Of a stretch of DNA of 64,000 nucleotides, positions 22,489 to 62,841 are shown piece by piece. The stretch covers positions 1-64,000 of the IMG/VR virus record IMGVR_UViG_3300044712_002706; one strand, given 5' to 3'. The notes under the pieces were generated by a model, which was given only the letters and a program-made list of their open reading frames with translations, was not told the origin of the DNA and made no database searches. Numbering within the stretch: the first letter of the stretch is position 1; each line of letters begins with the position of its first letter. This stretch comes from a virus. Position numbers and translations under genes: made by a program.

Positions 22489-22498
22489 GGGGAGAAAG

Positions 22499-43032: not shown

Positions 43033-43494
43033 ATGGATCAGAATCAGAATGCAGTTTTGTTTGTTGGATATCTCACGCTCGAGGAGTGGCTTCGGGCAGT
43101 GGATAAGAAGCGCCCGGTGTTTGCCGTGATGACGGCAACCGATGAAACGATGAGCTACATCGTGCGACGTGAGATAGTCATTGAAGTGGCGCAACCGGAG
43201 AACGTCCAGGCTATGGTGCATTACTGCCGCATTCTTGCCGGGCGCATGTCGTTTATGGGCGACTCCCCCGTCGAGAGCGATCACCCTGTGCGCACCGAGC
43301 GAGCACAGGGTTTGATGCGCATCATCGAGACCTGGCTGGAAGAGAAGGGGTTGACGGTGCTGCACGGGGCAATTGCCACGCCAATTGGGATGCAGTTCGT
43401 GAAAGGTTGGGCGGATTTCGTAACACTCGACAAGGCCACGCAAATGTTTGTATGGCCGGCGCATGATGCGCAGGAGGCTCTTGACAAATCATAG
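43033..43494 (+). CDS. early protein of unknown function
   Basis: 153 residues, with a GGAGG site spaced 7 bp from ATG. Alpha/beta (LFVGYLTLEEWLRAVDKKRPV; EKGLTVLHGAIATPIG). Ends the early operon. The -35 box of the following RNA promoter lies inside its last codons. No motif recognised. Confidence 0.55.
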   Translation: MDQNQNAVLFVGYLTLEEWLRAVDKKRPVFAVMTATDETMSYIVRREIVIEVAQPENVQAMVHYCRILAGRMSFMGDSPVESDHPVRTERAQGLMRIIETWLEEKGLTVLHGAIATPIGMQFVKGWADFVTLDKATQMFVWPAHDAQEALDKS

Positions 43495-43593: not shown

Positions 43594-43614
43594 CGCTTTA
43601 AGACAGCTTTATAA

Positions 43615-44531: not shown

Positions 44532-44544
44532 TACCAAAATCCTG

Positions 44545-44643
44545 TATAATTAATTTAAGCCTACGCCGTAGGCCTTGACCCTAGAGCACTGGGTATCCAG
44601 CGGGGTCGTTTGCAGTTTATTCTGCAAACGACCCCGCTTTTTT
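44545..44643 (+). ncRNA. twin structured RNA, copy 1 (before lysis genes)
   Basis: TATAAT (44545-44550), then hairpin gcctac-GCC-gtaggc (44559-44573). A 32-nt core identical to copy 2 follows (from 44576). It runs into a 17-bp perfect stem (44599-44615 / 44622-44638, loop TTTATT) followed by six T. The predicted RNA is about 85-90 nt without a reading frame and ends 20 bp before the holin-like gene. GACCC in the core can also pair with GGGGTC of the terminator stem, an antiterminator-like choice. Compared with copy 2 the terminator stem shows three compensatory pair changes. Confidence 0.75.
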
Positions 44644-44665: not shown

Positions 44666-45133
44666 ATGAAAAACAATCGTGTGATCAACCTGGTTTTATC
44701 GGCCCTGATGCTGGTGGCGCTGATTTTCGTGTCTGCGCACCCGGCCAGTGCCCAAGCTCAAACACCACCGGCGTCTGTGGATGCGTGGCTTGCGTTCGGC
44801 AAGGAAATTGCCACGCGGGGGGCGTGGTTGGGCCTGATCATCCTGCTCGACCTGATCTTGGGCGTCACCGTGGCGGTCAAGAATAAGACATTTCAATGGC
44901 AGAAGCTGGCGGACTTCCTCGGCGATTATGGGCCGAAGGTGGTGGGCTGGCTGTGTCTGGAAGTGTTACGGATGCTGCCGACGGATGTTGCTGCCGTCGC
45001 CGGCGTCGTGGGTACATTGGGCGTTGGCGCGTATGCCATCATTGTAGTAGCGGCTGTGGGCAGCGTGCTCAGCAGTGCCCAGGGCCTGGGGATAGTTCCG
45101 GCCAATGCGCCGGGGGTTTCGGCGAAGGGCTAA
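44666..45133 (+). CDS. holin-like membrane protein
   Basis: 155 residues from MKNNRVINLVLSALML, AGGAGG before ATG. A signal-like N-terminus ending ASAQA, a membrane segment (about 43-62, AWLGLIILLDLILGVTVAV), an amphipathic middle, and another membrane segment (about 112-133). It resembles small phage holin families that pair with a following endolysin gene. First gene after the twin RNA copy 1. Confidence 0.65.
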   Translation: MKNNRVINLVLSALMLVALIFVSAHPASAQAQTPPASVDAWLAFGKEIATRGAWLGLIILLDLILGVTVAVKNKTFQWQKLADFLGDYGPKVVGWLCLEVLRMLPTDVAAVAGVVGTLGVGAYAIIVVAAVGSVLSSAQGLGIVPANAPGVSAKG

Positions 45134-45165
45134 TATCTTCTCGGACAAATGCAAGATAGCACAAC

Positions 45166-45630
45166 ATGGAAGCACTGTACACCTTCGCACTCGCCCTAAT
45201 CCCCGCCCTGATTGCCTATCTCGCCAGTCGAGCCAGGAACCGTTCTGACGCCGCCGAAATCATCACCCGGGCGGCGGCGCAGGCGGTGAAACTGACCGAG
45301 GAGCTGCTCGAGGATGCTAACCAAACGATAGAAAAGCTAAAGACGGATTACGGTAAATTGCAGGAGGATTACAGCGAGCTGAAGTGCCTGTATCACCAGC
45401 AAGTGGACGTAAACCGAGACCTGCGTGAGCGCGATGCCCAGCGAGAACTCGAACTCGCCAAACTGAAAGAGCAATACGAGAGCCAGATATTTGTCAATCA
45501 CGAACTATCCAAGCGCAACAAGGCGAACGAGCGCGAACTCTCGCAGCTGAGGCAGAAGATATTCGACATCGAGAGAAAGACCGGCCCCTTGAGCGATAGA
45601 GAGAAAGGGAGACAAGCCGTAAGTCAGTAA
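45166..45630 (+). CDS. membrane-anchored coiled-coil lysis-cassette protein
   Basis: 154 residues. N-terminal membrane segment (about 4-20) and a long charged coiled coil (about 30-145, Glu/Lys/Arg/Gln). Lies between the holin-like and endolysin-like genes. Could be a second holin (LLH type) or a spanin-like protein. The coiled coil is longer than in most holins. Confidence 0.6.
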   Translation: MEALYTFALALIPALIAYLASRARNRSDAAEIITRAAAQAVKLTEELLEDANQTIEKLKTDYGKLQEDYSELKCLYHQQVDVNRDLRERDAQRELELAKLKEQYESQIFVNHELSKRNKANERELSQLRQKIFDIERKTGPLSDREKGRQAVSQ

Positions 45631-45641
45631 CGGCGGAAATC

Positions 45642-46745
45642 ATGATCAACGGCAAAGGCATATACATCTGGTATCTCAACCGCGGCGACGGAAACGGCTG
45701 CATTGCCGGCAATCTGCGCCTGTTGGTGTGGCTGCTGAAGGTAAACGGCTTCGGCCACATCCTGGTCAAGATCGCCGACGGCAGCGCCGTCATTCCTGGC
45801 GATGTTGGCCAACTGGTGCATCTCTGCCGGCAGGAAGGCATCCAGGTCTTCGGCTGGCAATACATCTACACCGGGTCCAACAACGAGGCCGATGTCGCCA
45901 TTCGCTTGTGCTTCGAGTACGGGCTGGATGGCTTCATCGTCAACGCCGAACGCCAGTTTGACCGGGTTGGTATGGATTCCGCAGCCGCTAACTATATGGG
46001 CCGGCTGCGTTCCGCCCTGGGAGATGATTTCCCCATCGGCCTGAGTTCGTACCGTTATCCGTCCGTCCATGCCGAGTTCCCTTGGCTGGCCTTCCTGGAA
46101 AAGTGCGACCTGGTCATGCCGCAGGTGTATTGGATGCAAGATAATGCACCCAACGCCCCGCTATACAACCTGGCCGCCACTTTCCGCGAACACAAGCAGT
46201 TGTATGGTGCGCTCGGCTTCGAGCGGCCCATCGTCTTCACCGGCGCATCGTTCAGTGAGCATGGCTGGGTGGCGACGCCTGAGCAAGTGCGTGTGTTTCT
46301 GGATGCCGTATCAACGATGGCACGCAGCGATAACCTGGTCGTGGATGCGTGCAACACCTGGGAGATGTGGGAGGCGCTCACTGAGAACGCCGAGCTGTGG
46401 CCCGTCATCGCCCAATACCCCTGGAGGTACACCCCGATGAGCACATTCGACGAATGGGCCGATATTGTTACCGACTCCCTGCGTTCGCAGGGCTTTCAAA
46501 TCCCCAACCCGCCGGTGACACAGGTCGAGCCGCCCGGCACGTTCCGGGTGCGCTTCGACGGCACCGTCAACCTGCGCAAGACACCCGGTGGAACCGACAT
46601 CGGCGACGTGAAGGGCGTGGTGACCGTTTCTGAACTGACCCAGCAGGCCCTGTATGGTGGTCGCTGGTATGAGTGGGGGCAGGTTACCGAGCCGGAGCAG
46701 TGGAAAGATGGCTGGGTGGCGATTGATAACGGGGTGCGGTTATAG
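45642..46745 (+). CDS. endolysin-like TIM-barrel protein with SH3 domain
   Basis: 367 residues. The N-terminal 260 residues read as a glycosidase-type barrel: FGHILVKIADGS, GIQVFGWQYIY, DGFIVNAERQFD (acidic residues of the likely active site), PIGLSSYRYPS, DLVMPQVYWMQ. The C-terminal 65 residues form an SH3-type wall-binding domain (FDGTVNLRKTPGG ... WYEWGQV ... WVAIDNG). No signal peptide, so it needs the holin to reach the wall. Likely the lysis enzyme of phage B. The exact glycosidase family is not certain. Confidence 0.7.
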   Translation: MINGKGIYIWYLNRGDGNGCIAGNLRLLVWLLKVNGFGHILVKIADGSAVIPGDVGQLVHLCRQEGIQVFGWQYIYTGSNNEADVAIRLCFEYGLDGFIVNAERQFDRVGMDSAAANYMGRLRSALGDDFPIGLSSYRYPSVHAEFPWLAFLEKCDLVMPQVYWMQDNAPNAPLYNLAATFREHKQLYGALGFERPIVFTGASFSEHGWVATPEQVRVFLDAVSTMARSDNLVVDACNTWEMWEALTENAELWPVIAQYPWRYTPMSTFDEWADIVTDSLRSQGFQIPNPPVTQVEPPGTFRVRFDGTVNLRKTPGGTDIGDVKGVVTVSELTQQALYGGRWYEWGQVTEPEQWKDGWVAIDNGVRL

Positions 46746-46750
46746 GTGAT

Positions 46751-47449
46751 ATGCACGATACGCAACCCTGGGAGCGATTACCCGATGAGCCTGGCCCGTG
46801 GTTTCAGCGGTTCGAGCGGTTTCGGATTATGGCCGACCGCTCTGTTTTGGCCGCCTTCAATCAGTGGCGTCTCGCGAAGTCTCGCGGAGTCTCGCGCTCT
46901 GCGCCGAGATCGTGGAGAAGTGCGGCGGCCCGCTGGAGATGGTACGAACGGGCCGAAGCGTGGGATCAGCACGTGGCCGAAGAAGCGGCGCTGCGGGCCG
47001 AGGCCGAACGGATGGCAATCTATCAGAGCGGATATGCCCAGCGGCATGAGCGTGTGCGCAAGCTCAATGCCCTGGCCGAACTTCTTTTTACGGAAGTTGA
47101 AGACGAAACCAAGCGCTGGCTTGACGATGTCAAATCCATTGGACGGGGCGATTTTGCGCACGAAGTTGACATTGTGCGCTTCAATGCGCCACTTATTGAG
47201 CAAGCCCGTAAGACCCTCGACGACCTGGCGCGGGAGATGGGCGACCGGGTTCAGCGTCAGGAGCATTCCGGCCAAATCTCCGTGCCCGTGTTGGGCGGCG
47301 GTGATGTGAGCGCGATGGATGACGGCCAATTACGCGGTGCGCTCGGTACTATCAGCCGGATCGCCGGGGCGCTTGCGGCAGGAACGAGCCTACCAGCAGG
47401 CGATCCAGGTGATTCGGAAAGCGATCCAACAGGCGAAGACGAGGAATGA
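46751..47449 (+). CDS. small terminase subunit
   Basis: 232 residues, 5 bp after the endolysin gene. RWRWYERAEAWDQHV in the first third is the hallmark of phage terminase small subunits. The rest is helical (AERMAIYQSGYAQRH ... FNAPLIEQARKTLDDLAREM) with an acidic tail. It recognises the DNA packaging site. The stretch before the motif is odd: a triple tctcgcg repeat (46871-46902), and a neighbouring frame reads more like a normal N-terminal domain there. Overlaps the large subunit by 131 bp. Confidence 0.75.
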   Translation: MHDTQPWERLPDEPGPWFQRFERFRIMADRSVLAAFNQWRLAKSRGVSRSAPRSWRSAAARWRWYERAEAWDQHVAEEAALRAEAERMAIYQSGYAQRHERVRKLNALAELLFTEVEDETKRWLDDVKSIGRGDFAHEVDIVRFNAPLIEQARKTLDDLAREMGDRVQRQEHSGQISVPVLGGGDVSAMDDGQLRGALGTISRIAGALAAGTSLPAGDPGDSESDPTGEDEE

Positions 47450-48224
47450 GCTAACGCCTGAGATTGTAGCGGCGTATGCCGCCCTGCACCTTACCACAGA
47501 CGACAACGTACCCATCGAGCCGGCAGCGCACCACATTTTGTGGCTGCGCCTGTTGTGTGACGAACGCATCAAGAAGCTGCTGATTATTGCCCCGCCAGAA
47601 AGCGCCAAAACGACCTGGTTGCAGGCTTATCTGGGCTGCCGGTTGGGGTTCTGGCCTGAGCAGAGCATCATCATCGGTTCGGTGAGTGGGCCGGTGGCTG
47701 AAAAACGCTCGCTGAGCTTGCGGGCTATGGTAGACAATGCCACCTGGCAGGCGACCTTTCCGGGCATCCTGCCGGTGAAAGCGGCAGAGGGCCTGACCTG
47801 GGCAACGACTGAATGGAGCATGGCCCCCGGGGGCCGCCCGAGGTCGGGGCGCATCCACCCCAGCATTGCCAGTTATGGCACGGGTGGCAGCGTGATCGGC
47901 AGCCGTGCCGACTTCGTTCTGGGTGACGATTTGCTCGATATGCGAAACAGCCGCACTGCCCACCAGCGCGGACTGGTTGAAACCTGGTTTCACAGCTCGT
48001 TGCTGAGCCGACGCAAGAGCCGGGTTGGGCGGTCTGTGCTGATTGGAACGATGTGGCACCACGACGACCTGTACGCCAAAGCGCGGCGGGATGGTTCGTG
48101 GGTGGTGTGCCACGTGCCGCTTTTATCAGATGGGCCGGACGTGTATGCAGAGTTGAGCTACCCAGATAGCTGGCGTTATGAGCGCCTGGGTGAGCCGATT
48201 TCTCGGGCGGTGTTGGATGGCTGA
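47319..48224 (+). CDS. large terminase, ATPase half
   Basis: 301 residues. Walker A-like APPESAKTT (91-99), Walker B VLGDDLLD (acidic pair 203-204), and GTMWHHDD (243-250), the motif III/C of viral packaging ATPases. It ends at a stop 8 nt into the second half. The first 30-40 residues overlap the small subunit, so the true start may be an internal GTG or ATG. It powers DNA packaging at the portal. All ATPase motifs are present but the nuclease domain is in the next frame. Confidence 0.85.
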   Translation: MTANYAVRSVLSAGSPGRLRQERAYQQAIQVIRKAIQQAKTRNELTPEIVAAYAALHLTTDDNVPIEPAAHHILWLRLLCDERIKKLLIIAPPESAKTTWLQAYLGCRLGFWPEQSIIIGSVSGPVAEKRSLSLRAMVDNATWQATFPGILPVKAAEGLTWATTEWSMAPGGRPRSGRIHPSIASYGTGGSVIGSRADFVLGDDLLDMRNSRTAHQRGLVETWFHSSLLSRRKSRVGRSVLIGTMWHHDDLYAKARRDGSWVVCHVPLLSDGPDVYAELSYPDSWRYERLGEPISRAVLDG

Positions 48225-48975
48225 GACACGCCGCTTATTACTGCACCGGAACGGGCCGGCCTTATGGCCTGAGCACAAGCCCCTCCACGAAGTGCTTGGC
48301 CTGATGAGTGAAACCCCGGAGACGGTCTGGGAAACCACCTACCAGGGAAACCCGACTCCGCCCGCGGGCACTGTCTTTCGCCGGGAGTGGTGGCGAGAGT
48401 CCAACCGCTACGACGCGGCGGATCGGTCGCATCTTGCGCAGTGTGTGGCCCGCTGGATTTCGTGGGACACCGGTCTGAAGGACGCCGACGGCAACGCTTA
48501 TACGGCTGGCGTGGTGGGCGAGTTGTGGCCCGATTACCGGATGGCCGTGCGTGAGATTTACCGGGAGCGTTTGCAGTTCCCGGATTTGCCGCCCAAGATT
48601 GAATGGCTTGCGCGCAAGCACAATGCCGATGGAAAACTGCGGGGAGTGATCATCGAAGACAAGGCGAGCGGCATCAGCGCTTATCAAACGCTGCGGGCAA
48701 GCGCAAATGACTGGCTGGCCGACATCTTGATCGCCTTCGAGCCAAACGGCGACAAGATTGTGCGGGCCAACCAGGCGGCGGTGTGGTGTAAGAATGGATG
48801 TGTTCTTTTACCCTGGCCGGGCATGAGCGTGCCCTGGCTGGTGGACTTTGAAGACGAGCTGTTCAACTTTCCGGGCAGTTCGTTCATGGATCAGGTGGAT
48901 GCCTTTGATCAACTGATCCTGTATACCGAGAACCTGCTGGCCGAGGGCTGGCGGGCAAGAAAAGGCAGTAACTAG
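48217..48975 (+). CDS. large terminase, nuclease half
   Basis: 252 residues from MAETRRLLLH, in the +1 frame relative to the ATPase half and overlapping it by 8 nt. Begins exactly where the linker between domains lies (ALWPEHKPLHEVL ... TTYQGNPTPPAGTVFRREWW). Nuclease acidic residues are present: Asp84 (SWDTGLKD), Glu147-Asp148 (GVIIEDKASG), Asp225/Asp228 (SSFMDQVDAFDQ). It cuts concatemeric DNA. No A-rich slip site is seen at the overlap. GGGCGGTG upstream of ATG may serve as its ribosome site. Confidence 0.85.
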   Translation: MAETRRLLLHRNGPALWPEHKPLHEVLGLMSETPETVWETTYQGNPTPPAGTVFRREWWRESNRYDAADRSHLAQCVARWISWDTGLKDADGNAYTAGVVGELWPDYRMAVREIYRERLQFPDLPPKIEWLARKHNADGKLRGVIIEDKASGISAYQTLRASANDWLADILIAFEPNGDKIVRANQAAVWCKNGCVLLPWPGMSVPWLVDFEDELFNFPGSSFMDQVDAFDQLILYTENLLAEGWRARKGSN

Positions 48976-48984
48976 GAGGCCGAT

Positions 48985-49356
48985 ATGGCAAAGACTGTAC
49001 ATGACGATGTTTTGGATGGTGCCCTGGCAATCATCCGCGGCAACTGTAACCTGATGGTGGCGTGCAGCGCACAACCTACCACGCGGGCCGAGGCCGTGAC
49101 GACCTACGCCCTGGCCGACGTGGCGATGACGCCGACCACGGATTTCACAATCTCGGACGGCGACGTGAGCGGGCGCAAGGTACGAACGGCGGCCAAGAGC
49201 GGTGTGACCGTGGATGCCAACGGCACGGCCACCTACATTGCGCTGGTCGATGGTACGCGCCTGCTGGCCGTGACCACCTGCACCAGCCAGGTGCTGACGG
49301 CTGGCAATACGGTGGATTTCCCGGCCTTCGATTTCGAGATCGCAGACCCAACCTAA
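48985..49356 (+). CDS. virion-associated beta protein
   Basis: 123 residues, AGGAGGC before ATG. Short N-terminal helix then regular beta strands rich in Thr/Ala/Val (TDFTISDGDVSGRKVRTAAKSGVTVD). This is the look of small phage decoration or fibre-base proteins. First gene of the block between terminase and portal. Confidence 0.6.
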   Translation: MAKTVHDDVLDGALAIIRGNCNLMVACSAQPTTRAEAVTTYALADVAMTPTTDFTISDGDVSGRKVRTAAKSGVTVDANGTATYIALVDGTRLLAVTTCTSQVLTAGNTVDFPAFDFEIADPT

Positions 49357-49368
49357 CAGGAGGCTGAT

Positions 49369-49656
49369 ATGGCCGCATTACCGACTGCATCACGCGTGCA
49401 AATCTGGCGCGGTCTGATGCGCTTTTGGTCTGAGTTACGGGAGACCGTGACTACCGTCACGAAGTCCGATCTGCAAGCTGCCGTGAACGCTGCCGATGAC
49501 TGGGTAGATGCCAATGCGGCTAGCTTCAACACGGCGCTGCCGGCCACGTTTCGCGCCAACGCCAGCACGTCACAAAAGTCTCTGCTATTGGTCGCTGTGG
49601 TGTTGATGCGCTTCAACGTCGAATTGCTCAAACGAGTGTTCGGGGAGGTGGACTGA
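49369..49656 (+). CDS. small helical virion-block protein
   Basis: 95 residues, AGGAGGC before ATG. All helical (SRVQIWRGLMRFWSELRETV ... SLLLVAVVLMRFNVELLKRVF). Its stop overlaps the next start (TGATG). Possibly a fibre assembly factor. Unknown. Confidence 0.55.
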   Translation: MAALPTASRVQIWRGLMRFWSELRETVTTVTKSDLQAAVNAADDWVDANAASFNTALPATFRANASTSQKSLLLVAVVLMRFNVELLKRVFGEVD

Positions 49657-50147
49657 TGGCCAATACACGCGCTGTATTTTCCGCATTGGCTGCTGTTTTC
49701 CCGGCGGCTAACTTTCCGCAGTTGCTGCTGGTCAATCGCCGTCCTGTGCTTGCCTTCGACGCTGGCACGGCGGAGACGTGCTATTTTGAGACCGTTGCCC
49801 CGCAAGGGCTAAACGGCACTCAAAATATGATCGTGCACTATTTTATGGCAAGCGCTACCAGTGGAAAAATTGACTTCGAAGTCGCCGTGGAATCGGTGAC
49901 GCCTGGTGATGCGCTCGACCTGGACGCGGCCGAATCGTTCGATACGGCGAATGGAATCACAGCCCCGACTGTGCCAGGCACAGCCGGGTACGAGTCGTCA
50001 TTCACATGCACGCTTACCAACGTGGATGGCATGGCGGCTGGAGACCACGTTCGTTTCTCGCTCAAACGAGATGCAACTGACGGCACGAACGACACAGCCA
50101 CCGGCGACTGCTACGTTTACAAGGTCGAGTGGAGAGACGCTGTATAA
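49656..50147 (+). CDS. beta-sandwich virion protein
   Basis: 163 residues. A jelly-roll-like beta protein (YFETVAPQGLNGTQNMIVHYFMAS ... FTCTLTNVDGMAAGDHVRFSLKRDA), a form common in phage head fibres and tail spikes. Coupled to both neighbours. Confidence 0.6.
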   Translation: MANTRAVFSALAAVFPAANFPQLLLVNRRPVLAFDAGTAETCYFETVAPQGLNGTQNMIVHYFMASATSGKIDFEVAVESVTPGDALDLDAAESFDTANGITAPTVPGTAGYESSFTCTLTNVDGMAAGDHVRFSLKRDATDGTNDTATGDCYVYKVEWRDAV

Positions 50148-51950
50148 ATGGCAATTCGGTTTGACGCTCTAGCCGACTATATATACAGGACTACCAGCCT
50201 GCCATCGCTCACAACACATACCTGGATGGCCTGGGTCTATATTGCCGTAGACCAGAACGCCGCCAGCGATATGTGGTTGTTCCTGGATGGCGCAGGAGGG
50301 TATTTCACGCTCGGAACAGCGTCGGATGGAACCACATTACGAGTTGTCAGTTCGACGGTGTCGGAAACTACTGGAACTAACCTGTCAACCGGCACCTGGT
50401 ATCACATCGCCCTTGTAAAGAGCGGATCAAGTGTGTCGGTGTATGTAGACGGCAATCTTGACATCGGCAGAACGGAATCGGTGTCTTTTACGCCGGCTTA
50501 CATCGTCATGGGGTCAAACTCTGTCAGTCAATATCTCAACGGTCGAGTTGACGATGTAAAAATCTGGTCTGGTGTTGCACTGACCCAGGCTGAGATACAG
50601 CAGGAAATGGTTATTAAGCGGCTGGTGCGCACGGATGGCATCAACGGTTTTTATCCAACATTTCCCGGCGCAAGTGAACGCCTGCTGGATTACAGTGGTT
50701 TAGGTCGAAACTGGTCGGCAGGCGGCACGCTGACCGACGAAGACCCGCCACCAGTTAGTTGGGGAAGCCCTGACCCGATTGTACTTGTGGCCGTGGCGAC
50801 ATTGGTTGTCCAGGATGCAGCCAGCGCCAGCACGCTCGATAATGCCGCGCTGACCCAACACCATGCCCTGGCTATCGCCGACGGCGCAAGTGCATCGGCT
50901 CTGGACAATGCTGCACTGACACAGCACCACCATCTGGCTGTGGCGGATGCGGCCAGTGGTGCAGCCCTCGATGGTGTTGCTTTGACCCAACACCACGTGC
51001 TGACGATTGGTGATGCTGCCAGCGGGACGGCGCTCGATAATGCCGCCCTGACCCAGCACCACCGATTGGCGATCAACGACGCAGCCAGCGCCAGCACGTT
51101 GGATAATGCGGCGCTGACCCAGCATCATCAGATTGCTATTCAGGATGCCAGTAGCAGCACGACCCTGGATCAGGTCAGCCTTACCCAGCATCACCAATTA
51201 GCTGCCCAGGATGCGGGCAGCGCCAGTGCCCTCGATGGCGTAACGCTGGCCCAACACCATGTGCTGGCCGTCGCAGACGAAACCAGCGCGACGGCGTTGG
51301 ATAATGCCGATCTGACGCAGCACCACCATCTGACCGTAGCAGATGCGGAATGTCCATCAGCGTTGGATGGCGTATCCCTGGCCCAGCACCACGTGTTGGC
51401 GGTCGGAGATGCGACTTGCGGCACGGCCCTGGATAATGTCACCCTGGTGATTGCAGGGCAGCTTGTGGTGGATGATCTGACGGCTGCCACGGCCCTGGAG
51501 CCGGTCTCGCTAACTCAGCATCACACGTTGGCAATTAGCGATGCCGTAAGTGGCGCATCCCTGGACAATGTTACCCTGGCGGTCGCAGGCCATCTTGACG
51601 TAGACGAACTGGTATCTGCAACATCCCTGGACACAGTGACGCTCGCTCAGCAGCACCGGCTTGTGACCCAGGATATGGCGAGCGCATCCACCCTGGATAA
51701 TGTCACGCTCCTGGGCACCACCACCACCCTGGCGATTGATGATGCGGACTGTGCCACGACGCTCGAAACGGTTACGTTTGAGATAACGGTCATCGTCACG
51801 CTGTACGCTCGTGACCTGGCCGTGACGCTCGAAGAGCGCAACCTGGCCGCCACCTTTTACGCTCGCAACCTGGCTGAGACACTCGACGAGCGCAACCTGG
51901 ATGTCGATCTGCCGGGCCGACGCCTGGCATTCACACTGGAGGAACGATGA
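50148..51950 (+). CDS. fibre-like protein: LamG domain plus fifteen 22-residue His repeats
   Basis: 600 residues. N-terminal LamG/concanavalin-like domain (about 1-190: TWMAWVYIAVD, TGTWYHIALVKSGSSVSVYVDG, LNGRVDDVKIWSGVALTQAEIQ). Then about fifteen tandem 22-residue units of the form LxVxDAxSxxxLDxxxLTQHH (about 222-550), and a last set of 9-10-residue units (TLYARDLAVTLEERNL). Predicted beta-solenoid or trimeric fibre whose repeated QHH turns could bind metal. The LamG end may bind sugars on the host surface. Confidence 0.75.
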   Translation: MAIRFDALADYIYRTTSLPSLTTHTWMAWVYIAVDQNAASDMWLFLDGAGGYFTLGTASDGTTLRVVSSTVSETTGTNLSTGTWYHIALVKSGSSVSVYVDGNLDIGRTESVSFTPAYIVMGSNSVSQYLNGRVDDVKIWSGVALTQAEIQQEMVIKRLVRTDGINGFYPTFPGASERLLDYSGLGRNWSAGGTLTDEDPPPVSWGSPDPIVLVAVATLVVQDAASASTLDNAALTQHHALAIADGASASALDNAALTQHHHLAVADAASGAALDGVALTQHHVLTIGDAASGTALDNAALTQHHRLAINDAASASTLDNAALTQHHQIAIQDASSSTTLDQVSLTQHHQLAAQDAGSASALDGVTLAQHHVLAVADETSATALDNADLTQHHHLTVADAECPSALDGVSLAQHHVLAVGDATCGTALDNVTLVIAGQLVVDDLTAATALEPVSLTQHHTLAISDAVSGASLDNVTLAVAGHLDVDELVSATSLDTVTLAQQHRLVTQDMASASTLDNVTLLGTTTTLAIDDADCATTLETVTFEITVIVTLYARDLAVTLEERNLAATFYARNLAETLDERNLDVDLPGRRLAFTLEER

Positions 51951-52261
51951 TAAATCAACGGGCGATTACGCAAGGCGAACTGGATCAAGGCGTATTAGAA
52001 CGCGTGGTCTATACCTGCACCGTCCCGGCGACCTGGGGAACGCCTGTCACTGCGACGTTTACGGCGTATGACATCACCACAGGCGACCCGGTCAACGTTA
52101 GCCAGGCTATTCTGGCTGGGGCCGGTACGGCGGTGGGCAGCGAAATTACCACGCCGGCGGTGCATAGCCTGACGCTGAACCACAAATACGAGCTGCATTG
52201 CACGTTTACCACGGCGACCAGCACACTCGATTTCATCATCCCGATCAAGGCGACGAGGTAG
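51947..52261 (+). CDS. small beta protein after fibre
   Basis: 104 residues, ATGA coupled to the fibre gene. Beta type (LERVVYTCTVPATWGTPVTATFTAYD ... KYELHCTFTTATSTLDFIIPI), the pattern of small phage head-fibre partner proteins. Probably assembles with the fibre. Confidence 0.6.
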   Translation: MINQRAITQGELDQGVLERVVYTCTVPATWGTPVTATFTAYDITTGDPVNVSQAILAGAGTAVGSEITTPAVHSLTLNHKYELHCTFTTATSTLDFIIPIKATR

Positions 52262-52263
52262 AT

Positions 52264-53076
52264 ATGCGTCATCTTTCTGAAAATATCTGGTTCAGTTGGC
52301 AGAACTTGAGCGAAAAGAAGCCAAAGCAGCCATTGTGGAAAAATGGCCGGGCATGGTTGCACATCGCCGAGAAGTGCGTCACGATTGAATGGAATGTTGG
52401 TAAAGGTTGGCCGTTGGCCCACATTAATATTGGCGGCGGAGATGGAGATAACAAAATCTCTTTATCTCTATCATTCCCGTTTATCGGTTTTTACCACATT
52501 GCCTTCGAAGGCTTTGTTCCGCGTAAATACTTCCCGAAGGTATACCGCAAAAACTACGCACACCCGGGCGAGATGTGGAACGCTCCGGTCGAACGCCAGA
52601 TCGGTATTTCTATCAATGACGGTTATGTGTTCATTTCGTTGTGGGAAAACCCCGATGAGTGGAATAAGACAGATCCGTGGTGGTGGAAATTCTCGTTCAA
52701 TCCGGCTGATATCATCCTGGGCCACCAGAAATACAGCGAGAAAGAGCTTCTGACAACAACGGAGATGATTCCGCTTCCAGAAGCGTCGTATGCTGCCACA
52801 GTACGTATCGTGGAGTCAAAGTGGAAACGACCTCGCTGGCCGTGGCCAATGCGCATGCTGCGGGCCAAGATTACGCCATCCAACCCAATCCCAACCCACG
52901 CAGGAAAAGGGGAGAATTCCTGGGATTTGGACGACGATTACCTATATGACATGACCTGCCAAGCGAACACGCCCAAAGAAGCTGCTCAAAAGGTCGCCGA
53001 CTCAGTTATGCGAGAGCGACGTCGGTATGGTTTACCAGATTGTCTGGAAGGAATTGGGTATGCGCCAAGTTTCTGA
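52264..53076 (+). CDS. conserved-looking protein before portal
   Basis: 270 residues from MRHLSENIWFSWQNL. Aromatic- and Trp-rich alpha/beta protein (IGISINDGYVFISLWENPDEW, WKRPRWPWPMRMLRAK) with a helical end (TPKEAAQKVADSVMRERRRYG). No motif recognised. It overlaps the next gene by 17 nt. The position suggests a packaging or head role. Confidence 0.6.
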   Translation: MRHLSENIWFSWQNLSEKKPKQPLWKNGRAWLHIAEKCVTIEWNVGKGWPLAHINIGGGDGDNKISLSLSFPFIGFYHIAFEGFVPRKYFPKVYRKNYAHPGEMWNAPVERQIGISINDGYVFISLWENPDEWNKTDPWWWKFSFNPADIILGHQKYSEKELLTTTEMIPLPEASYAATVRIVESKWKRPRWPWPMRMLRAKITPSNPIPTHAGKGENSWDLDDDYLYDMTCQANTPKEAAQKVADSVMRERRRYGLPDCLEGIGYAPSF

Positions 53077-53461
53077 TTGGATGCTCAAACACATACAAGA
53101 TGCCCGCTCTTTATTTGGCGTAGGCGGTGCCGAGTGGCACATCACGGCCAAGCTGACCGATAAGCCACTGGGCACCGATGAGTGCAACGGAAGCGTGACC
53201 GTAGATGCCACCTACCTGAACGCTACCATCGAGCTGCACGAAGACCTGGAAGACAACGATGTCGCCAGAGATTCTGTCTACCATGAGGTGCTGCACATCC
53301 CGCACGAGGAGATCGATCACCTGGTGGCCGGCATCATTGGCGAGCTGCCTGCCGATGTTCGGGATCGGTATGACACGCTTTATCACGAGACGGTGGAACG
53401 CTTCGTTCAGCGCGTGAGCCGTAGCATTTGCGCAGGATTGCGCAAGGAGTCCGACGAATGA
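53060..53461 (+). CDS. zincin-like protein with HEVLH motif
   Basis: 133 residues from MRQVSDWMLKHIQD, AAGGAA before ATG. YHEVLHIPHEEIDHL contains HExxH, the zinc-binding helix of metallopeptidases, with further His/Glu residues next to it. Upstream strands (NGSVTVDATYLNATIEL) fit a small zincin fold. Coupled by ATGA to the portal gene. It could process head proteins, or be a folded but inactive relative. Confidence 0.6.
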   Translation: MRQVSDWMLKHIQDARSLFGVGGAEWHITAKLTDKPLGTDECNGSVTVDATYLNATIELHEDLEDNDVARDSVYHEVLHIPHEEIDHLVAGIIGELPADVRDRYDTLYHETVERFVQRVSRSICAGLRKESDE

Positions 53462-55065
53462 ACCTGTGGACACAGAACGCAAACACAACCTGGATTGCTG
53501 CCGAACTGGCCCGCCAGTCGGCCTACCAGCCCACGCCGGCGGCAATGTACATGATGCTGGAAATGTACTACAACAACAACGGCCTGTATGACGCCATCCA
53601 GCAAGAGCTGTATGCACAGGCCATCTGGACGCCCGGCATGAAGGGGCTGCGCAACCCGGCCCATCGGATTGTCGAGTTTTACCCGTCCAAAATCTGGCCG
53701 GGCACACTACCCGATGCGCTGCCCATCCTGACCGATAACCCGGAGATTGTCGAACCCATCCAGCAGGGCTGGACATGGTCGAACTTCGGGGCCAAGAAGC
53801 AATTGGCGGCCAGGTGGTTCTCGATGTTCGGGGATTGGTTCGTCAAAGTGCCAACGCATAGCGATTCCAATGGTGTGGTAGATCGGGTGTACCAGCAGCA
53901 AATCAAGCCTGAATACGTGACCGACTTCGACGAAGACGAGCGCGGCTTTATCAACTATATTCGCATCGACATTCCGATGTCGGAACGCGATGAAGCTGGT
54001 CAGACCGTTGTTTATACCCATACCGAAGTGTGGGATAAAGCGGCGGGAACTTACCGAACCTGGAAGAACGAGCAAGGGGCGTCGGCCAGCGTTGACCAGC
54101 TCGGCACTCCGGCGGTGTCGCGGGAGATCGCCGAGTTCGGCATTGATTTCGTGCCGTTTGTGCATGCGATGTTCCAGGACGTGGGAGACAAGCGCGGCGT
54201 TGGGGCCTTCGTGCATTCACTCGACAAGATCGACGAAGTGAACCGCCAGGCGACCCGGCTGCACCAGCTTATCTTCCGCTACAACAAAGCCACCTTGGTG
54301 GCATCGGCCAACGATAAGGACGCCCAGGGACGACCATTGCCAGCTCCTAAAATTGGCGATAGCGCCGGGAAGTTGGCGCTGGGCGACGATGATATCCTGC
54401 TGATGCCTGGCATGAGCAAGCTCGATAGCATGGTGCCGCCGATCAACTACGAAGCCCACCTGAAGGCCATCGATGCCCAGCTCGGTGAGCTGGAGACCGA
54501 CCAGCCCGAGCTGCTCTACTACCGCCTGAAGGAGATAGGCAGCGGTGACATATCTGGGCGGGCGCTGCGCACGCTGCTTTCGGCGGCCAATGATAAGGTG
54601 CTGGAAGCACGCGGCAACATGGAGACGGCGCTGATTCGGGCCGATCAGATGATGCTGACCATCGGCGTCAATGCTGGCCTGTTCCCGGCCAACATTGGCA
54701 AATACGAGAATGGCGACTTCGATCACCGCTTTGCCAATCGGGATGTGTTCCCGCTTTCAGATATTGACGTGGCCGAAGTGGTCAAGGCGGACGTGGACGC
54801 CGGCATCCCGCTGGTGACGTCATTGCGCAAGCGTGGCTGGAGCGAAGCCGATATCAAAGAGATGGAGAAAGATAAGGCAAAGGAAAAGAAAGCGAATGCG
54901 GCAAGCCTTGGCCAGGCGCTGCTGAATGCGCAGCGCAACTTCGACGCCGGCGGACAATCTTTGGATGACCCCGCAACAGGGAACCCTGCGGCGGGTAACG
55001 CTGCACGAGACGTAAACAGCACGGTAGGAAACGGCATCGTAGACGAGGCCGAAAACCATGCCTGA
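53458..55065 (+). CDS. phage B portal protein
   Basis: 535 residues from MNLWTQNANTTWIAAEL (ATGA overlap). Typical portal layout: helical wing start, beta-rich wing (VVYTHTEVWDKAAGTYRTWKNEQG), the long stem helices (SLDKIDEVNRQATRLHQLIF), and a helical C-terminal crown (EADIKEMEKDKAKEKKANAASL). It forms the 12-fold DNA gate at one capsid vertex and docks the terminase. Overlaps the MuF gene by 8 nt. Confidence 0.85.
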   Translation: MNLWTQNANTTWIAAELARQSAYQPTPAAMYMMLEMYYNNNGLYDAIQQELYAQAIWTPGMKGLRNPAHRIVEFYPSKIWPGTLPDALPILTDNPEIVEPIQQGWTWSNFGAKKQLAARWFSMFGDWFVKVPTHSDSNGVVDRVYQQQIKPEYVTDFDEDERGFINYIRIDIPMSERDEAGQTVVYTHTEVWDKAAGTYRTWKNEQGASASVDQLGTPAVSREIAEFGIDFVPFVHAMFQDVGDKRGVGAFVHSLDKIDEVNRQATRLHQLIFRYNKATLVASANDKDAQGRPLPAPKIGDSAGKLALGDDDILLMPGMSKLDSMVPPINYEAHLKAIDAQLGELETDQPELLYYRLKEIGSGDISGRALRTLLSAANDKVLEARGNMETALIRADQMMLTIGVNAGLFPANIGKYENGDFDHRFANRDVFPLSDIDVAEVVKADVDAGIPLVTSLRKRGWSEADIKEMEKDKAKEKKANAASLGQALLNAQRNFDAGGQSLDDPATGNPAAGNAARDVNSTVGNGIVDEAENHA

Positions 55066-56029
55066 CCCCCTGGTGGTAAGCATGGCTCAACAGTTTCGAG
55101 ACGCCCTCCTGCGCCGCGAGGCCGTCCAGATGCAGGAGATGGCGACGCGCTGGCTGCAGGTGGAGCGGGTTCTCGACCTGGCGTTTACAGCGCTGGCCTT
55201 CGAAGCCCAGACGAGCGGCCCGCTGAGCGAGGCGAAGCTGGCGAAGATGGAACGCTACCAGGCCATGTTGGCCCAGGTGCAAAGCGAACTGGCCCGCTAC
55301 AACCAGTATGCGGCCACGACGATGACGGCTGAGCAAGGAATGAACCTGACCCAAGGCATCGAGGACGGTAACGCTTTGCTGGCTGCTGCTGGGGCGACGC
55401 CTGGCTATCGGATTTCAATGGCGGCGGTGGAGTACGCTGCCGGCTTCGCCGGCGATGGCACGCCGCTGTATAAGCTCTTGCAGGACGGTTACGGGGAGAC
55501 GGCAGCGGCGATCACGCAGCAGCTCATCACGGGCGTGGCGATGGGGATCAACCCAATCGCCAACGCCCGCAGGATGCGGGATGCCTTCGGGATGTCTTTT
55601 GACCGCAGCTTGTTAATTGCCCGCACCGAGCAGATCAGGCCATACCGCATGGCGAGCCTGGGGCAATACAAGGAGAGCGGCGTAGTGGCCGGATATCGGC
55701 GGGTAGCAGCGAAAAGCCTGCGCACGTGCATCGCTTGCCTGATTGCCGATGGGCGGTTCTACCCGCTGGACGTTCCCTTCGAAGAGCATCCGCAAGGAAG
55801 ATGCACGCCGATCCCGGTAGTGATTGGGATGCCAGAGATTAAATACGAGACCGGCAAGACGTGGTTTTTGAAACAGGGCGATAACGTACAACGCCAACTG
55901 ATGGGTGCGGGGAAATTCTCCGCATGGAAGGATGGCAAATTCGACCTGGAGCAGATTGTCAAACTGCACGAGGATGAGACGTGGGGCAATAGCCTGGTGC
56001 CCACGCCGCTTGCCGATTTACTAGAATAA
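55058..56029 (+). CDS. phage B MuF-type head morphogenesis protein
   Basis: 323 residues. Helical N-terminal half, then the MuF core: GVAMGINPIANARRMRDAFG, LLIARTEQIRPYRMASLGQYKESG, and the Cys pair CIACLIADGRFY with a later EEHPQGRCTPIPV, the usual Cys/His signature of this family. Such proteins bind the portal and enter the procapsid. It stands directly after the portal gene as expected. Confidence 0.85.
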   Translation: MPDPLVVSMAQQFRDALLRREAVQMQEMATRWLQVERVLDLAFTALAFEAQTSGPLSEAKLAKMERYQAMLAQVQSELARYNQYAATTMTAEQGMNLTQGIEDGNALLAAAGATPGYRISMAAVEYAAGFAGDGTPLYKLLQDGYGETAAAITQQLITGVAMGINPIANARRMRDAFGMSFDRSLLIARTEQIRPYRMASLGQYKESGVVAGYRRVAAKSLRTCIACLIADGRFYPLDVPFEEHPQGRCTPIPVVIGMPEIKYETGKTWFLKQGDNVQRQLMGAGKFSAWKDGKFDLEQIVKLHEDETWGNSLVPTPLADLLE

Positions 56030-56038
56030 ATAATCTGC

Positions 56039-56141
56039 TATAATCAATTTAAGCCTACTATGCGTAGGCATTCGACCCTAGAGCACTGGGTATCCAGCGG
56101 GGTCGCTCACAGTTTATTCTGTGAGCGACCCCGCTTTTTTT
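56039..56141 (+). ncRNA. twin structured RNA, copy 2 (before capsid operon)
   Basis: Extended -10 TGC TATAAT (56036-56044), hairpin gcctac-TATGC-gtaggc (56053-56069), the same 32-nt invariant core as copy 1, and a 17-bp perfect terminator stem (56096-56112 / 56119-56135, loop TTTATT) with seven T. The stem differs from copy 1 at three positions on each arm and all three are compensated (T-A to C-G twice, G-C to A-T once). The unit starts 10 bp after the MuF stop and ends 49 bp before the scaffold gene. Confidence 0.75.
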
Positions 56142-56190: not shown

Positions 56191-56877
56191 ATGTTGTTCA
56201 AGCCCAAATCAGGATTGTGGTTCGCACCCAGCACGGACAACGCCACCGGGACATCACCCGTTCAGACACCGGATACAACGCCGCCGGCTGAGCCAGGTGG
56301 GTCGAACGGCGGAGCAACTGGGCCACAAGCTACCGCGCCGGCGTCACCGGCGGCGACCGCCAAGCCGCTGACGTTTGAGAGCGAAGAGAAGCTGGAGAGA
56401 TACATCGAGGATGCTCTGAAAGAGCGCTTGGAGCGTGCACAGAAGAAGGCCGATAAACTGGCCGCAGAAGCCCGCGAGAAGGCCGAAGCCGATGCTGCCG
56501 TCAAAAACGGCGAGTGGCAGAAGTTGGCCGAAACACGCGAGAGCAAGCTCAAAGAACTTTCGGCGCAGCTCGAAACCATCCCCGGATTACAGACCAAAGC
56601 TGAGCGTTACGAGAAGGCACTCAACGCCTACCTGGCGACGCAGCGCTCTGGACTGCCAGCACACGTGACCGTGCTGCTGGATAAGCTCGACCCGGTGGAT
56701 CAGCTCGAATACATCGCCAAAAACCGTGAAGCGCTCAGCCAAAACGTGAGCATTGCGAACGCTGGCAGCGCCCACATCCCACCCACGCCCACTGCGGGAA
56801 ACCCAGGCCAGATCACATCTGAACAGATGAACCAGGCCCGGCAAGCGCAGCTGGCGCGGACAAAGAGTAATTTTTAG
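56191..56877 (+). CDS. phage B scaffold protein
   Basis: 228 residues, counterpart of 1-666: the same MLFKPKSGLWFA start, a variable Gly/Pro/Thr segment, the coiled coil (EKLERYIEDALKERLERAQKKADK) and the basic KSNF end. The variable segment is 7-8 residues longer. First gene of the capsid operon after the twin RNA copy 2. Confidence 0.75.
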   Translation: MLFKPKSGLWFAPSTDNATGTSPVQTPDTTPPAEPGGSNGGATGPQATAPASPAATAKPLTFESEEKLERYIEDALKERLERAQKKADKLAAEAREKAEADAAVKNGEWQKLAETRESKLKELSAQLETIPGLQTKAERYEKALNAYLATQRSGLPAHVTVLLDKLDPVDQLEYIAKNREALSQNVSIANAGSAHIPPTPTAGNPGQITSEQMNQARQAQLARTKSNF

Positions 56878-56892
56878 TAACAGGAGTATTCC

Positions 56893-57693
56893 ATGACTGA
56901 TTTAGCGTTAGTCACTGCAAACCGCCTGTATCTGGTTGAAAGTCTGGAGCAGATGACCCTGCCCGCTGTGGAAGCGATTGTGGCGGGCCAGTCTGTTCGG
57001 ATCGACACCAGCACAGGCAAGTTCACCAAAGCCAATGGCACCACGGCCGCAGAAAAGCGGGCGTATGGCATGGCACTCAAGACCGTGGCCGCCGGGCAGC
57101 CGGTGACGGCGGTTCGTAAGGGTGTGGTAGATGGGTACGATTTATCGGGCCTGGCCTACGACGCCGATGTATATTTGTCGGATACCGATGGAATGCCGGC
57201 GGACGCCGCAGGCACCGTCGAGCGGAAAATCGCCAAGGTTATCCCAGCCTTTGCCACCACCCTGGGAACGGCGGCAGATAAACTGCTGCGCGTGGATTAC
57301 AACGAAGGCGAGCAATCGCAGGTATTGGTTGTCACCAGTGAATTACTGGCAGCCAGCGTGGATAAGTGGATGTTCGTAGCCGACCGCCCTTACCAGGTGA
57401 CCGGCGTCCGTGAAATCCATAGCGTTGTTGGCGGGTCCGGCGCAGTGGTACGCCCTCGCAAGGTGACCGCTGCCGGAACCGACGCCCCCGGTGCTGCAGC
57501 TGGCACGACCGTGAAGGAATTGACCGCCGCCGACATCGGCCTGGAAACCACCATCAACACCACCCAAAGCCCGGCGCTTTCGGCCACCGCTGCCGACCTG
57601 CTGTTGGCCGCCGGTGACAAAATCGGCCTGAACCTGGGCGGCACATTGACCGGCTTGGTGGGGAGCATCTCCATCATCCTGAAGGCGCTGTAG
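56893..57693 (+). CDS. phage B capsid decoration-like protein
   Basis: 266 residues, the same length as 679-1479 and alike throughout (shared start MTDLALVTANRL, shared KEIHSVVGG/REIHSVVGG region). The best conserved parts are the first 100 residues and the last 80. Ribosome site AGGAGT. Role as for the phage A copy. Confidence 0.65.
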   Translation: MTDLALVTANRLYLVESLEQMTLPAVEAIVAGQSVRIDTSTGKFTKANGTTAAEKRAYGMALKTVAAGQPVTAVRKGVVDGYDLSGLAYDADVYLSDTDGMPADAAGTVERKIAKVIPAFATTLGTAADKLLRVDYNEGEQSQVLVVTSELLAASVDKWMFVADRPYQVTGVREIHSVVGGSGAVVRPRKVTAAGTDAPGAAAGTTVKELTAADIGLETTINTTQSPALSATAADLLLAAGDKIGLNLGGTLTGLVGSISIILKAL

Positions 57694-57703
57694 GAGGCAC
57701 ATC

Positions 57704-58795
57704 ATGGCTAACCAAGTTCTTATGGGATTTCTGAACCTTCAGGGTATGTTCGACCAGCGCGTAAGCTCTGTCAACATTGACCTGATCAACACTGCTATTC
57801 AGCAGAGCGTGGATGAGCACAACCGGCAGGTTGCGGCAGTGATGTCGTTATTCGTCGCCAAAAATCCGCGCTTCAACCAATCGCCAACAGTCCGTTTCAA
57901 AACCCCTGTTGCGGTTCGTAATCAACCCCTCGATGAAAATGGCCGCGCTCGCCCGATTCGTGTAGCGGGTCATTATGACGTGGCGTTCCCCCTGCAAGGC
58001 AGCGGTAACGCCTGGGGTGCGAATTTCGTGGCCCGCGAGAAGATGACGGTGGAAGATGCCAACAACATCACTGCCACCCTCATCGATGGCGACACGCGTT
58101 GGATGCGTGACCACGTACTGGCGGGCTTGTTCACCAACGTCAGTTGGACGTATACCGACGATGATGACGATGTGGGCAGCCTGACCATCAAAGGCCCGGC
58201 CAACGGCAACACCGACACCTATCTGGTGCAAGGTGGTGCAGATGCGGGTGCGACCGATACCCACTTCCTGGCGCAGTCTGATGCTATCGCCACTGCCCAC
58301 AACCCATTCCCGACCATGTATCAGGAACTCATGGAGCACCCTGAGAACGGCGGGGAAGCGGTATGCTTCGTGCCGACATCCAATAAGGCTGCCGTCGAAG
58401 GCGTCAGCGGGTTTGTGGTAGCACGCCGACCGAACGACCCCGTTCAACCGGGTTCAAGCACCGACGTGCTGGTAGGCGACCTGCCGGCCAGCGTTCCGGG
58501 CAAGCTCTTTGGGTATCTCAACGATACATGGATGGTTCACTGGCCGACCCTGCCGACGGATTACCTGATCGAAGTCGCCACCCAGGGCGAGCGAGCTTTG
58601 GGGATGCGCGAGCACCCCGAAGCCAGCTTACAGGGCTTCAAACGGGTGGCCGAACGCAATGACCATCCCTTCATGGAAGCGCAGTACCTTCGCTTCGCCG
58701 GGTTCGGCGCATGGAACCGGGTGGGCGTGGTCGTGCAGCGCGTGGGCAATGGCAGCTATGCCATCCCCACCAACTTCACCAGCCCGATGCCCTAA
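57704..58795 (+). CDS. phage B major capsid protein
   Basis: 363 residues, strongly similar to 1490-2578. Differences: a few inserted residues near position 52 (KNPRFNQSP) and a shorter C-terminus (TSPMP). The central segments DTRWMRDHVLA, TIKGPANG and VPGKLFGY are shared. The pair shows that both phages build the same type of head. Confidence 0.82.
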   Translation: MANQVLMGFLNLQGMFDQRVSSVNIDLINTAIQQSVDEHNRQVAAVMSLFVAKNPRFNQSPTVRFKTPVAVRNQPLDENGRARPIRVAGHYDVAFPLQGSGNAWGANFVAREKMTVEDANNITATLIDGDTRWMRDHVLAGLFTNVSWTYTDDDDDVGSLTIKGPANGNTDTYLVQGGADAGATDTHFLAQSDAIATAHNPFPTMYQELMEHPENGGEAVCFVPTSNKAAVEGVSGFVVARRPNDPVQPGSSTDVLVGDLPASVPGKLFGYLNDTWMVHWPTLPTDYLIEVATQGERALGMREHPEASLQGFKRVAERNDHPFMEAQYLRFAGFGAWNRVGVVVQRVGNGSYAIPTNFTSPMP

Positions 58796-58807
58796 GCCTG
58801 TTTTGAT

Positions 58808-58838
58808 AGCGGGGGCAGCCTGGCTGCCCCCGCTCTTT
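58808..58838 (+). terminator. terminator-like hairpin after capsid gene
   Basis: 11-bp perfect stem agcgggggcag / ctgcccccgct, loop CCTGG, followed by CTTTT. It takes the same place as the unrelated hairpin of phage A (2593-2624). Probably lowers connector expression relative to capsid. Confidence 0.7.
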
Positions 58839-58849
58839 TAGGAGCTTAC

Positions 58850-59236
58850 ATGCACCCACGAATTCTAGCCGAACGCACTGCTCTGGCCGCTGAGCGTCTG
58901 ACCGAGGACGCCCGACGGCTGGCCCAGGCACTCGACCTACCAGAAGACCTGGTCAAAGACCTGACCCCAGACGAAAACAATGTACAGGTCAGGCCGATGC
59001 TGGTGCTGGAAGCCTGCGCCAACCTGGTGAAAGCGGCTGCCGATAAGTTGGCTCAGCCAGTCGAGATTGAGCCGATCCCCCCATTCGTAATCGAAACCCA
59101 GGAAGGCAACATCACTCTGGAGCTTTCTGCAATATCGCCGGCACCTATCGCCGAAACCGGCGATGGTGTGGCCAACACCGCCATTTCCGACGGTACTGAA
59201 GCAAAAACGAAGGTGAAGCGTGGCGGCTCCAAGTAG
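58850..59236 (+). CDS. phage B small head protein
   Basis: 128 residues, counterpart of 2639-2977 (MHPRILAERTAL). The helical first 85 residues match and the C-terminal linker is longer and differs, while the basic end (KVKRGGSK) is kept. Overlaps the next GTG start. Confidence 0.6.
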   Translation: MHPRILAERTALAAERLTEDARRLAQALDLPEDLVKDLTPDENNVQVRPMLVLEACANLVKAAADKLAQPVEIEPIPPFVIETQEGNITLELSAISPAPIAETGDGVANTAISDGTEAKTKVKRGGSK

Positions 59237-59678
59237 CTACACCGAGATCACCCTCGGCCAGTACGTGCTGAACGTGCTGGGCCAAATGGCCGCGTATATC
59301 GGATGGACGGACGCCGCGCATGCCGGCGAAGTGGTCAACGACATCCTGCTCGAACTGGGCGTGGACGATATCAGCACGATCAGCGGGTCCGAAAACATCC
59401 GCCACCTGCGGGCTGTGGCTCGATATCACGCCTGGAAGACGGCGGCAGAGTTGACCAGCGGGAAGTATGACTTCTCGACCGGCGACTCAGGCAGCTTCAA
59501 GCGCAGCCAGATGCACACGATGGCCCAGGAAAACGCCGAGAAAGCACGAGCAGAAGCCAACGAGGCGGCGCTCGCTGCTGGCAGCGAAGCCTACCCGGGC
59601 TACGAAGTGACCACGGTGCAGGCGGTCTACCAAGAACCCTACCAGGCCAGCTATCTGCTTGACGAGGACGACCTGTGA
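59220..59678 (+). CDS. phage B head-tail connector (adaptor-like)
   Basis: 152 residues from GTG. Close counterpart of 2961-3428 (shared ENIRHLR, TSGKYDF, GSFKRSQ). The shared GTG supports this start in both phages. ATGA-type overlap with the next gene. Confidence 0.62.
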   Translation: MAAPSSYTEITLGQYVLNVLGQMAAYIGWTDAAHAGEVVNDILLELGVDDISTISGSENIRHLRAVARYHAWKTAAELTSGKYDFSTGDSGSFKRSQMHTMAQENAEKARAEANEAALAAGSEAYPGYEVTTVQAVYQEPYQASYLLDEDDL

Positions 59679-60450: not shown

Positions 60451-60452
60451 CG

Positions 60453-60851: not shown

Positions 60852-60866
60852 GGCGTGGAGGTAATT

Positions 60867-62168: not shown

Positions 62169-62193
62169 TCTGTAGTGTTGACGAAGGAGCGAT

Positions 62194-62786: not shown

Positions 62787-62789
62787 GTG

Positions 62790-62824: not shown

Positions 62825-62841
62825 GGTAAAAGGACAAAGAT

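What the first reader, a model, noticed from the sequence alone, without database searches (positions are those of the whole stretch)
44545..44643. Twin small structured RNA with compensatory base changes (copy 1, before lysis genes)
Two elements, here and at 56039-56141, share a -10 box, a 5' hairpin with identical stem but different loop, a 32-nt invariant core and a 17-bp terminator stem. The stems differ at three positions, and each change is matched on the other arm so that pairing is kept. Such covariation in only two copies is strong evidence for selection on RNA structure. The invariant core suggests a bound partner or target. I know no described phage RNA with this build.
Basis: partly seen in the sequence, partly recalled or inferred. 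Interest (0 to 1): 0.85.

Follow-up and report, generated by a model that had tools for sequence, protein, structure and literature searches.

The report
Twin late-operon promoter-leader-terminator gates
A bacterial prophage carries two near-identical start-then-stop RNA switches, one before its lysis and packaging genes and one before its capsid genes, which probably keep both late operons off until the polymerase is allowed past the stop; the layout recalls phage lambda's late switch, but the RNA sequence matches nothing known.

Summary
Two units (44538-44643 and 56032-56140) share a -10 box, a 6-bp 5' hairpin with different loops, an identical 32-nt core and a 17-bp intrinsic terminator whose three changed pairs are all compensated. 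Flanks are unrelated. The predicted RNAs (87-91 nt) fold far better than shuffles (z -8 to -9). The covariation lies only in the terminator stem, so it shows selection for a terminator and nothing more exotic. The overlooked feature is position: each unit is the last thing before a late operon (lysis/terminase; scaffold/capsid), with 22-50 bp and no promoter between terminator and first gene, so element-started RNA reaches those genes only by reading through. Five of eight relatives also have a strong terminator just before the scaffold gene (background 2.7%), with unrelated sequence. Best explanation: twin late-operon gates, lambda PR'-tR'-like in logic, probably opened by antitermination acting on the conserved transcribed leader. 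Lambda-Q hallmarks (conserved spacer, -10-like pause, Q homologue) were not found, nor any Rfam match. No third copy was found in viral contigs, phage records or 396 genomes of one phylum; the sister prophage's copy is cut off. The regulator, and the reading of the RNA, are inferred.

The parts
44545..44550 (+). element 1, -10 box TATAAT (weak -35: ATGAAT, spacer 15, at 44524)
44538..44643 (+). element 1, whole conserved unit
   Evidence: alignment with copy 2, unrelated flanks
44557..44643 (+). element 1, predicted terminated leader RNA, 87 nt (start inferred from -10)
   Evidence: fold z -8.3; transcript not shown
44559..44573 (+). element 1, 5' hairpin GCCTAC-GCC-GTAGGC
44577..44608 (+). 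element 1, invariant 32-nt core; 44577-44607 can form a bulged hairpin that takes the 5' arm of the terminator
   Evidence: identity, prefix folding
44599..44643 (+). element 1, intrinsic terminator, 17-bp stem plus T-run
56017..56044 (+). element 2, promoter TTTACT-16-TATAAT with extended -10 TGC
56032..56140 (+). element 2, whole conserved unit
56051..56141 (+). element 2, predicted terminated leader RNA, 91 nt (start inferred)
   Evidence: fold z -9.1
56053..56069 (+). element 2, 5' hairpin GCCTAC-TATGC-GTAGGC
56074..56105 (+). element 2, invariant 32-nt core
56096..56141 (+). element 2, intrinsic terminator, 17-bp stem plus T-run
44666..56029 (+). late operon I behind element 1: small membrane (holin-like by position) protein, coiled coil with weak Rz-like hit, lysin-like ORF 45642, terminase small (46751) and large (47319) subunits, structural genes, minor head protein (55058)
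56191..64000 (+). late operon II behind element 2 (continues beyond the window to about 70.1 kb): scaffold-like 56191, major head protein 57704, tape-measure-like 62842
43033..43494 (+). last gene of the early operon, 153-aa orphan at the position lambda Q has; candidate regulator by position only

Best explanation
Each element is the control leader of a late operon. A host-type promoter starts a short RNA that by default ends about 90 nt later at a very strong intrinsic terminator, so that in the lysogen and early in infection only the short RNA is made. Late genes behind it (lysis and packaging behind element 1, scaffold and capsid behind element 2) are expressed when polymerase starting at the element, or arriving from upstream, is made to read through the terminator. 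The signal that permits reading through most likely lies in the transcribed leader (5' hairpin plus 32-nt core), which is what the two copies share; the core can pair with the terminator's 5' arm, giving a possible terminator/antiterminator choice. Having the same leader at both operons lets one regulator switch both together. Shown: the elements, their positions, absence of a promoter directly behind them, the recurring terminator position in relatives. Inferred: transcription start, default termination, regulated readthrough, and the identity of the regulator.
For: Position: terminator stem and T-run end 22 and 50 bp before the first gene, no promoter fits between; on the + strand of 43.4-70.3 kb the best promoter scores are 43481, 56017 (element 2) and 43608, and element 1 has a perfect -10. 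The two terminators are by far the strongest on the + strand of 36-64 kb. Each lies exactly at a late-operon start. The conserved unit runs from just before the -10 to the T-run and nothing beyond. In 5 of 8 relatives a terminator of -18 kcal/mol or better lies within 200 nt before the scaffold gene, background 2.7%; in L015 a TTGACG-17-TAAGAT promoter precedes it by 30 nt with no room for another behind. Growing RNA prefixes form the core hairpin with the terminator's 5' arm before the terminator can form. Gene order (early operon, element 1, lysis genes, terminase) matches that of lambda around PR'-tR' (own knowledge; for PR', tR' and Q see PMC6606751).
Against: No antiterminator gene recognised; the 153-aa gene at the Q position is an orphan and its model is useless (pLDDT 39). 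The antiterminator pairing is not much better than chance (46/1000 and 103/1000 shuffles as stable). Element 1 has a weak -35. Two strong promoters at 43481 and 43608 could feed operon I. No transcript data. In L009, L010, L012 and L017 no convincing promoter precedes the terminator, so there it could be a plain boundary terminator.
Confidence: 0.55

Rival explanations
1. Trans-acting small RNA: the short terminated RNA is the product, made from two loci in the lysogen, and the core pairs with host or phage mRNAs, as StxS made from PR'-tR' of Stx phages does.
For: Stable 5' hairpin and terminator flank an invariant core; StxS is a precedent (PMC7873438). Not exclusive with the gate.
Against: No phage gene start pairs with the core better than with shuffled cores (60% of shuffles as good). 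Host not known, so host targets untested. Does not explain why both copies sit directly before late operons.
Confidence: 0.15
2. Plain boundary terminators: the elements end the preceding operon (a long 17-bp stem may even withstand antitermination), with an incidental promoter, and late genes are expressed by leakage or from the 43.5-43.6 kb promoters; the repeat is a recombination linker.
For: Terminators at the same place in relatives often lack a convincing promoter in front. Strong promoters exist at 43481 and 43608.
Against: The conserved unit includes the -10, discriminator, 5' hairpin and core, not only the terminator; element 2's promoter is among the three best of the late region and points into the terminator. 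Operon II would have to be fed through two strong terminators.
Confidence: 0.17
3. Lambda-Q-type gate read at the DNA level: a Q-like protein binds the promoter and loads at a sigma-dependent pause; the leader sequence itself is not read.
For: Same promoter-terminator-late operon logic and gene order; Q proteins are very diverse and could be missed.
Against: The -35 to -10 region (QBE place, PMC6606751) is not conserved between the copies beyond a few nt next to the -10; a NANNAT pause motif is present early in copy 2 only; no Q family hit among the early genes scanned.
Confidence: 0.08
4. Recent duplication of a promoter-terminator cassette without special function; similarity is descent, and the compensated changes come from copying within the palindrome.
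For: Only two copies known; two rows cannot prove constraint.
Against: 17 differing columns avoid the 32-nt core (P about 0.003 if independent, 0.06 if only 8 events); all stem changes keep pairing; both copies at late-operon starts.
Confidence: 0.05

Closest known systems
Lambda/phage 21 PR'-tR' late leader with Q antitermination
   Same: Promoter, short leader, intrinsic terminator directly before the lysis-packaging-head genes; default short RNA; placed after the early operon.
   Different: Conservation lies in the transcribed leader, not in the QBE/spacer; no conserved -10-like pause; no Q homologue seen; two copies for two late operons; leader of only about 42-45 nt before the terminator.
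HK022 put RNA
   Same: Promoter-proximal RNA that can form two hairpins (5' hairpin and bulged core hairpin); two copies in one phage; phage uses host polymerase.
   Different: put is about 70 nt, follows the early promoters and is not fused to a terminator; its second hairpin does not consist of a terminator arm; no sequence relation seen.
StxS sRNA (PR'-tR' by-product of Stx phages)
   Same: Short terminated RNA from a late promoter leader.
   Different: StxS is processed by RNase E and binds Hfq; no sequence relation seen; trans targets of the present RNA not found in the phage.
LoaP/dfn leader hairpin (NusG-paralogue antitermination)
   Same: Leader hairpin followed by an intrinsic terminator before a long operon.
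   Different: No NusG-like gene seen in the early genes scanned; the dfn leader is long (417-nt template) with a UNCG hairpin; not phage late operons.

Membership tests
Lambdoid Q / PR'-tR' late antitermination | promoter followed by leader and intrinsic terminator immediately before late genes | tested here: met
Lambdoid Q / PR'-tR' late antitermination | conserved Q-binding element between -35 and -10 | tested here: not met
   only AATC next to the -10 shared; further upstream 12/40 identity
Lambdoid Q / PR'-tR' late antitermination | -10-like pause sequence in the initial transcribed region | tested here: not met
   present in copy 2 only
Lambdoid Q / PR'-tR' late antitermination | Q protein gene upstream | tested here: inconclusive
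   no Pfam or PHROGs Q hit in the early genes scanned; 153-aa orphan at the position
HK022 put RNA | two-hairpin nascent RNA that binds the beta' zinc-binding domain of RNA polymerase | not testable with these tools
   two hairpins possible in prefixes; binding needs experiment
HK022 put RNA | element separate from the terminator, acts on distant terminators | tested here: not met
   core overlaps the terminator arm
Any Rfam 15 RNA family | match above gathering score | tested here: not met
   none in window; lax search gives only hairpin matches far below threshold
Intrinsic terminator | GC-rich stem followed by T-run, pairing maintained | tested here: met

The most novel reading that the evidence does not exclude
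A new cis-acting antitermination RNA: the nascent 5' hairpin and core hairpin bind host RNA polymerase or a phage factor and, by holding the 5' arm of the terminator, open two late operons in concert; an RNA-read counterpart of the lambda late switch in phages of little-studied bacteria.
Probability: 0.2. Interest if true: 0.75.

Novelty: new variant of a known kind. Interest (0 to 1): 0.5.

Why it matters
Late-gene control by antitermination is known in depth mainly from lambdoid phages. A twin leader with an invariant RNA core, placed before both late operons of an uncultured prophage, would be a compact, easily tested case of late control read from RNA, and the recurring terminator before the scaffold gene in relatives suggests that late antitermination may be common in this phage group even though leader sequences turn over quickly.

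Tried and rejected
Exact core and a relaxed core pattern in viral contigs: none. Element against phage records: one chance hit. Covariance model of core plus terminator against 23 sources and 396 genomes of one phylum: only the two copies; the single other hit (26.6 bits, L032) is a terminator-like hairpin without the core. Core as a repeated DNA operator: its half-motif CTGGGTATCCAG has no other exact site in the window. Core as antisense seed for phage gene starts: no better than shuffles. Relatives by other proteins (600-aa gene, terminase, tape measure): few or none, none with the element. A second copy of L009's own leader in its 59.7-kb contig: none. Structure of the 153-aa gene without an alignment: unusable. 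CRISPR-repeat mimic and packaging (cos/pac) site were considered and dropped, on inspection of sequence and position only. Host assignment by plasmid comparison: uninformative. Chloroflexota genomes could not be reached as a search centre.

Full report
Setting. The window is the first 64 kb of a 76,662-bp virus record. Its genes show a tandem arrangement: window 1-14.6 kb is a 73-87% identical second copy of the late genes at 56.2-70.1 kb, and position 1 is exactly the start of the scaffold-like gene, so that any element in front of that copy is cut off. The prophage under study runs from an integrase (36285-37325) through a pair of divergent perfect promoters (38560-38649) and an early operon (DdrB-like protein, PolB-type exonuclease, a 153-aa orphan) to the late genes.

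Observation. The two units were aligned by hand and located in the window: 92 of 109 columns are identical from about 7 nt before the -10 to the T-run, while the flanks match at chance level. They contain a -10 TATAAT, the discriminator AATTT, a 6-bp 5' hairpin with loops GCC or TATGC, a 32-nt identical core and a 17-bp terminator with the identical loop TTTATT. The predicted transcripts of 87 and 91 nt fold with z -8.3 and -9.1, most of it from the terminator (-34 and -37 kcal/mol alone). The differences in the terminator are three pairs, changed on both sides. If six changed sites fell at random in the stem, three complete and complementary pairs would come about with probability near 2e-5. 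But terminators need their stem, and copying within a palindrome can change both arms at once, so this does not show a special RNA. The core and 5' stem do not vary, so there is no covariation evidence for them. That all 17 differing columns avoid the core has probability about 0.003 if the columns are independent and 0.06 if they are only eight events.

Context. Element 1 lies 22 bp before the gene of a small membrane protein (holin-like by position), followed by a coiled-coil gene with a weak Rz-like hit, a lysin-like ORF, small and large terminase genes and head genes. Element 2 lies 50 bp before a scaffold-like gene and the major head protein (phrog_3990, E 5e-20). No promoter fits between terminator and first gene. 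Over 27 kb of the + strand the best promoter scores are at 43481, 56017 (element 2) and 43608; element 1 has a perfect -10 and a weak -35. Transcripts started at the elements can reach the late genes only by reading through a 17-bp terminator.

Relatives. Profile searches with the major head protein gave nine viral contigs and one contig of an Acidobacteriota MAG at 44-58% identity, and a second genome of that phylum. None has this sequence. In five of eight independent relatives with a readable scaffold start, a terminator of -18 kcal/mol or better lies within 200 nt before that gene, against 2.7% of random stretches of the same contigs; random stretches are mostly coding, which makes this background low. 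In L015 a good promoter (TTGACG-17-TAAGAT) precedes it by 30 nt with no room for another behind. In the other four the promoter is not convincing. So the terminator position recurs, the full promoter-leader-terminator build is seen clearly in one relative, and the sequence is not conserved.

Mechanism. The logic of a default-terminated late leader is that of lambda PR'-tR' (PMC6606751). The Q-specific marks fail: no conserved spacer between -35 and -10, a -10-like sequence in the initial transcribed region only in copy 2, and no Q family match in the early genes scanned. What is conserved is the transcribed part. In folding of growing prefixes the core's GACCC pairs with GGGTC of the terminator's 5' arm before the terminator can form, with pairing probability above 0.99 in that prefix; the completed terminator is then much more stable. 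This is a possible antiterminator, but 5-10% of shuffled cores do as well, so it is a hypothesis. put RNA of HK022 shows that a nascent two-hairpin RNA can itself make polymerase resistant (PMC9378689), and LoaP shows a protein that reads a leader hairpin and relieves a leader terminator (PMC12691694). StxS shows that the short RNA of a late leader can have a second job in trans (PMC7873438); no target among the phage's own gene starts stood out.

Verdict. The two elements are real, non-random and best read as twin gates of the two late operons. What makes the polymerase pass is not known; recognition of the leader RNA, by a phage factor or by polymerase itself, is preferred over a DNA-bound Q. 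The case is a new variant of a known kind, resting on two copies and one clear relative of the same build.

Noticed in passing
window 1-14620 and 56191-64000 (to about 70.1 kb in L003): Late genes occur twice, 73-87% identical, in tandem; further short repeats 14662-14830/70.2 kb, 24739-25013/70.9 kb and 30322-30447/76.5 kb suggest two tandem related prophages.
   Followed up: partly
43481-43511 and 43608-43635: Two strong promoters share AGACCGnnTGTGCTATAAT just after the early operon; the stretch behind the first holds a GC-rich hairpin (about 43566-43594).
   Followed up: partly
37437-37510: A stretch resembling the 5' part of a leucine tRNA lies just behind the integrase gene; ARAGORN calls no tRNA there. 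Possibly an attachment-site remnant.
   Followed up: no
L003 15121-16590 (record 75120-76589), window 31041-33131, 34775-35857: ParM-like partition gene, FtsK-like gene and a gene with a weak DnaA N-terminal match next to an integrase: the element may be a phage-plasmid or have acquired plasmid functions.
   Followed up: partly
50801-51656: Internal repeats (63-72% identity) in a 600-aa gene of late operon I.
   Followed up: no
6543-6613: Imperfect 71-bp palindrome before the tape-measure-like gene of the left copy; the right copy has a different hairpin there (about 62792-62824).
   Followed up: no
47319-48975: Large terminase gene is split into two overlapping frames (47319-48224 and 48178-48975): frameshift, intron remnant or sequencing error.
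   Followed up: no
16497-22689: Type I restriction-modification locus (HsdR, HsdS, HsdM) between the two prophage parts.
   Followed up: no
L012 2380-2612: About 200 nt with several hairpins between a TATAAT and the terminator before the scaffold gene of a relative; a possible longer leader RNA.
   Followed up: no
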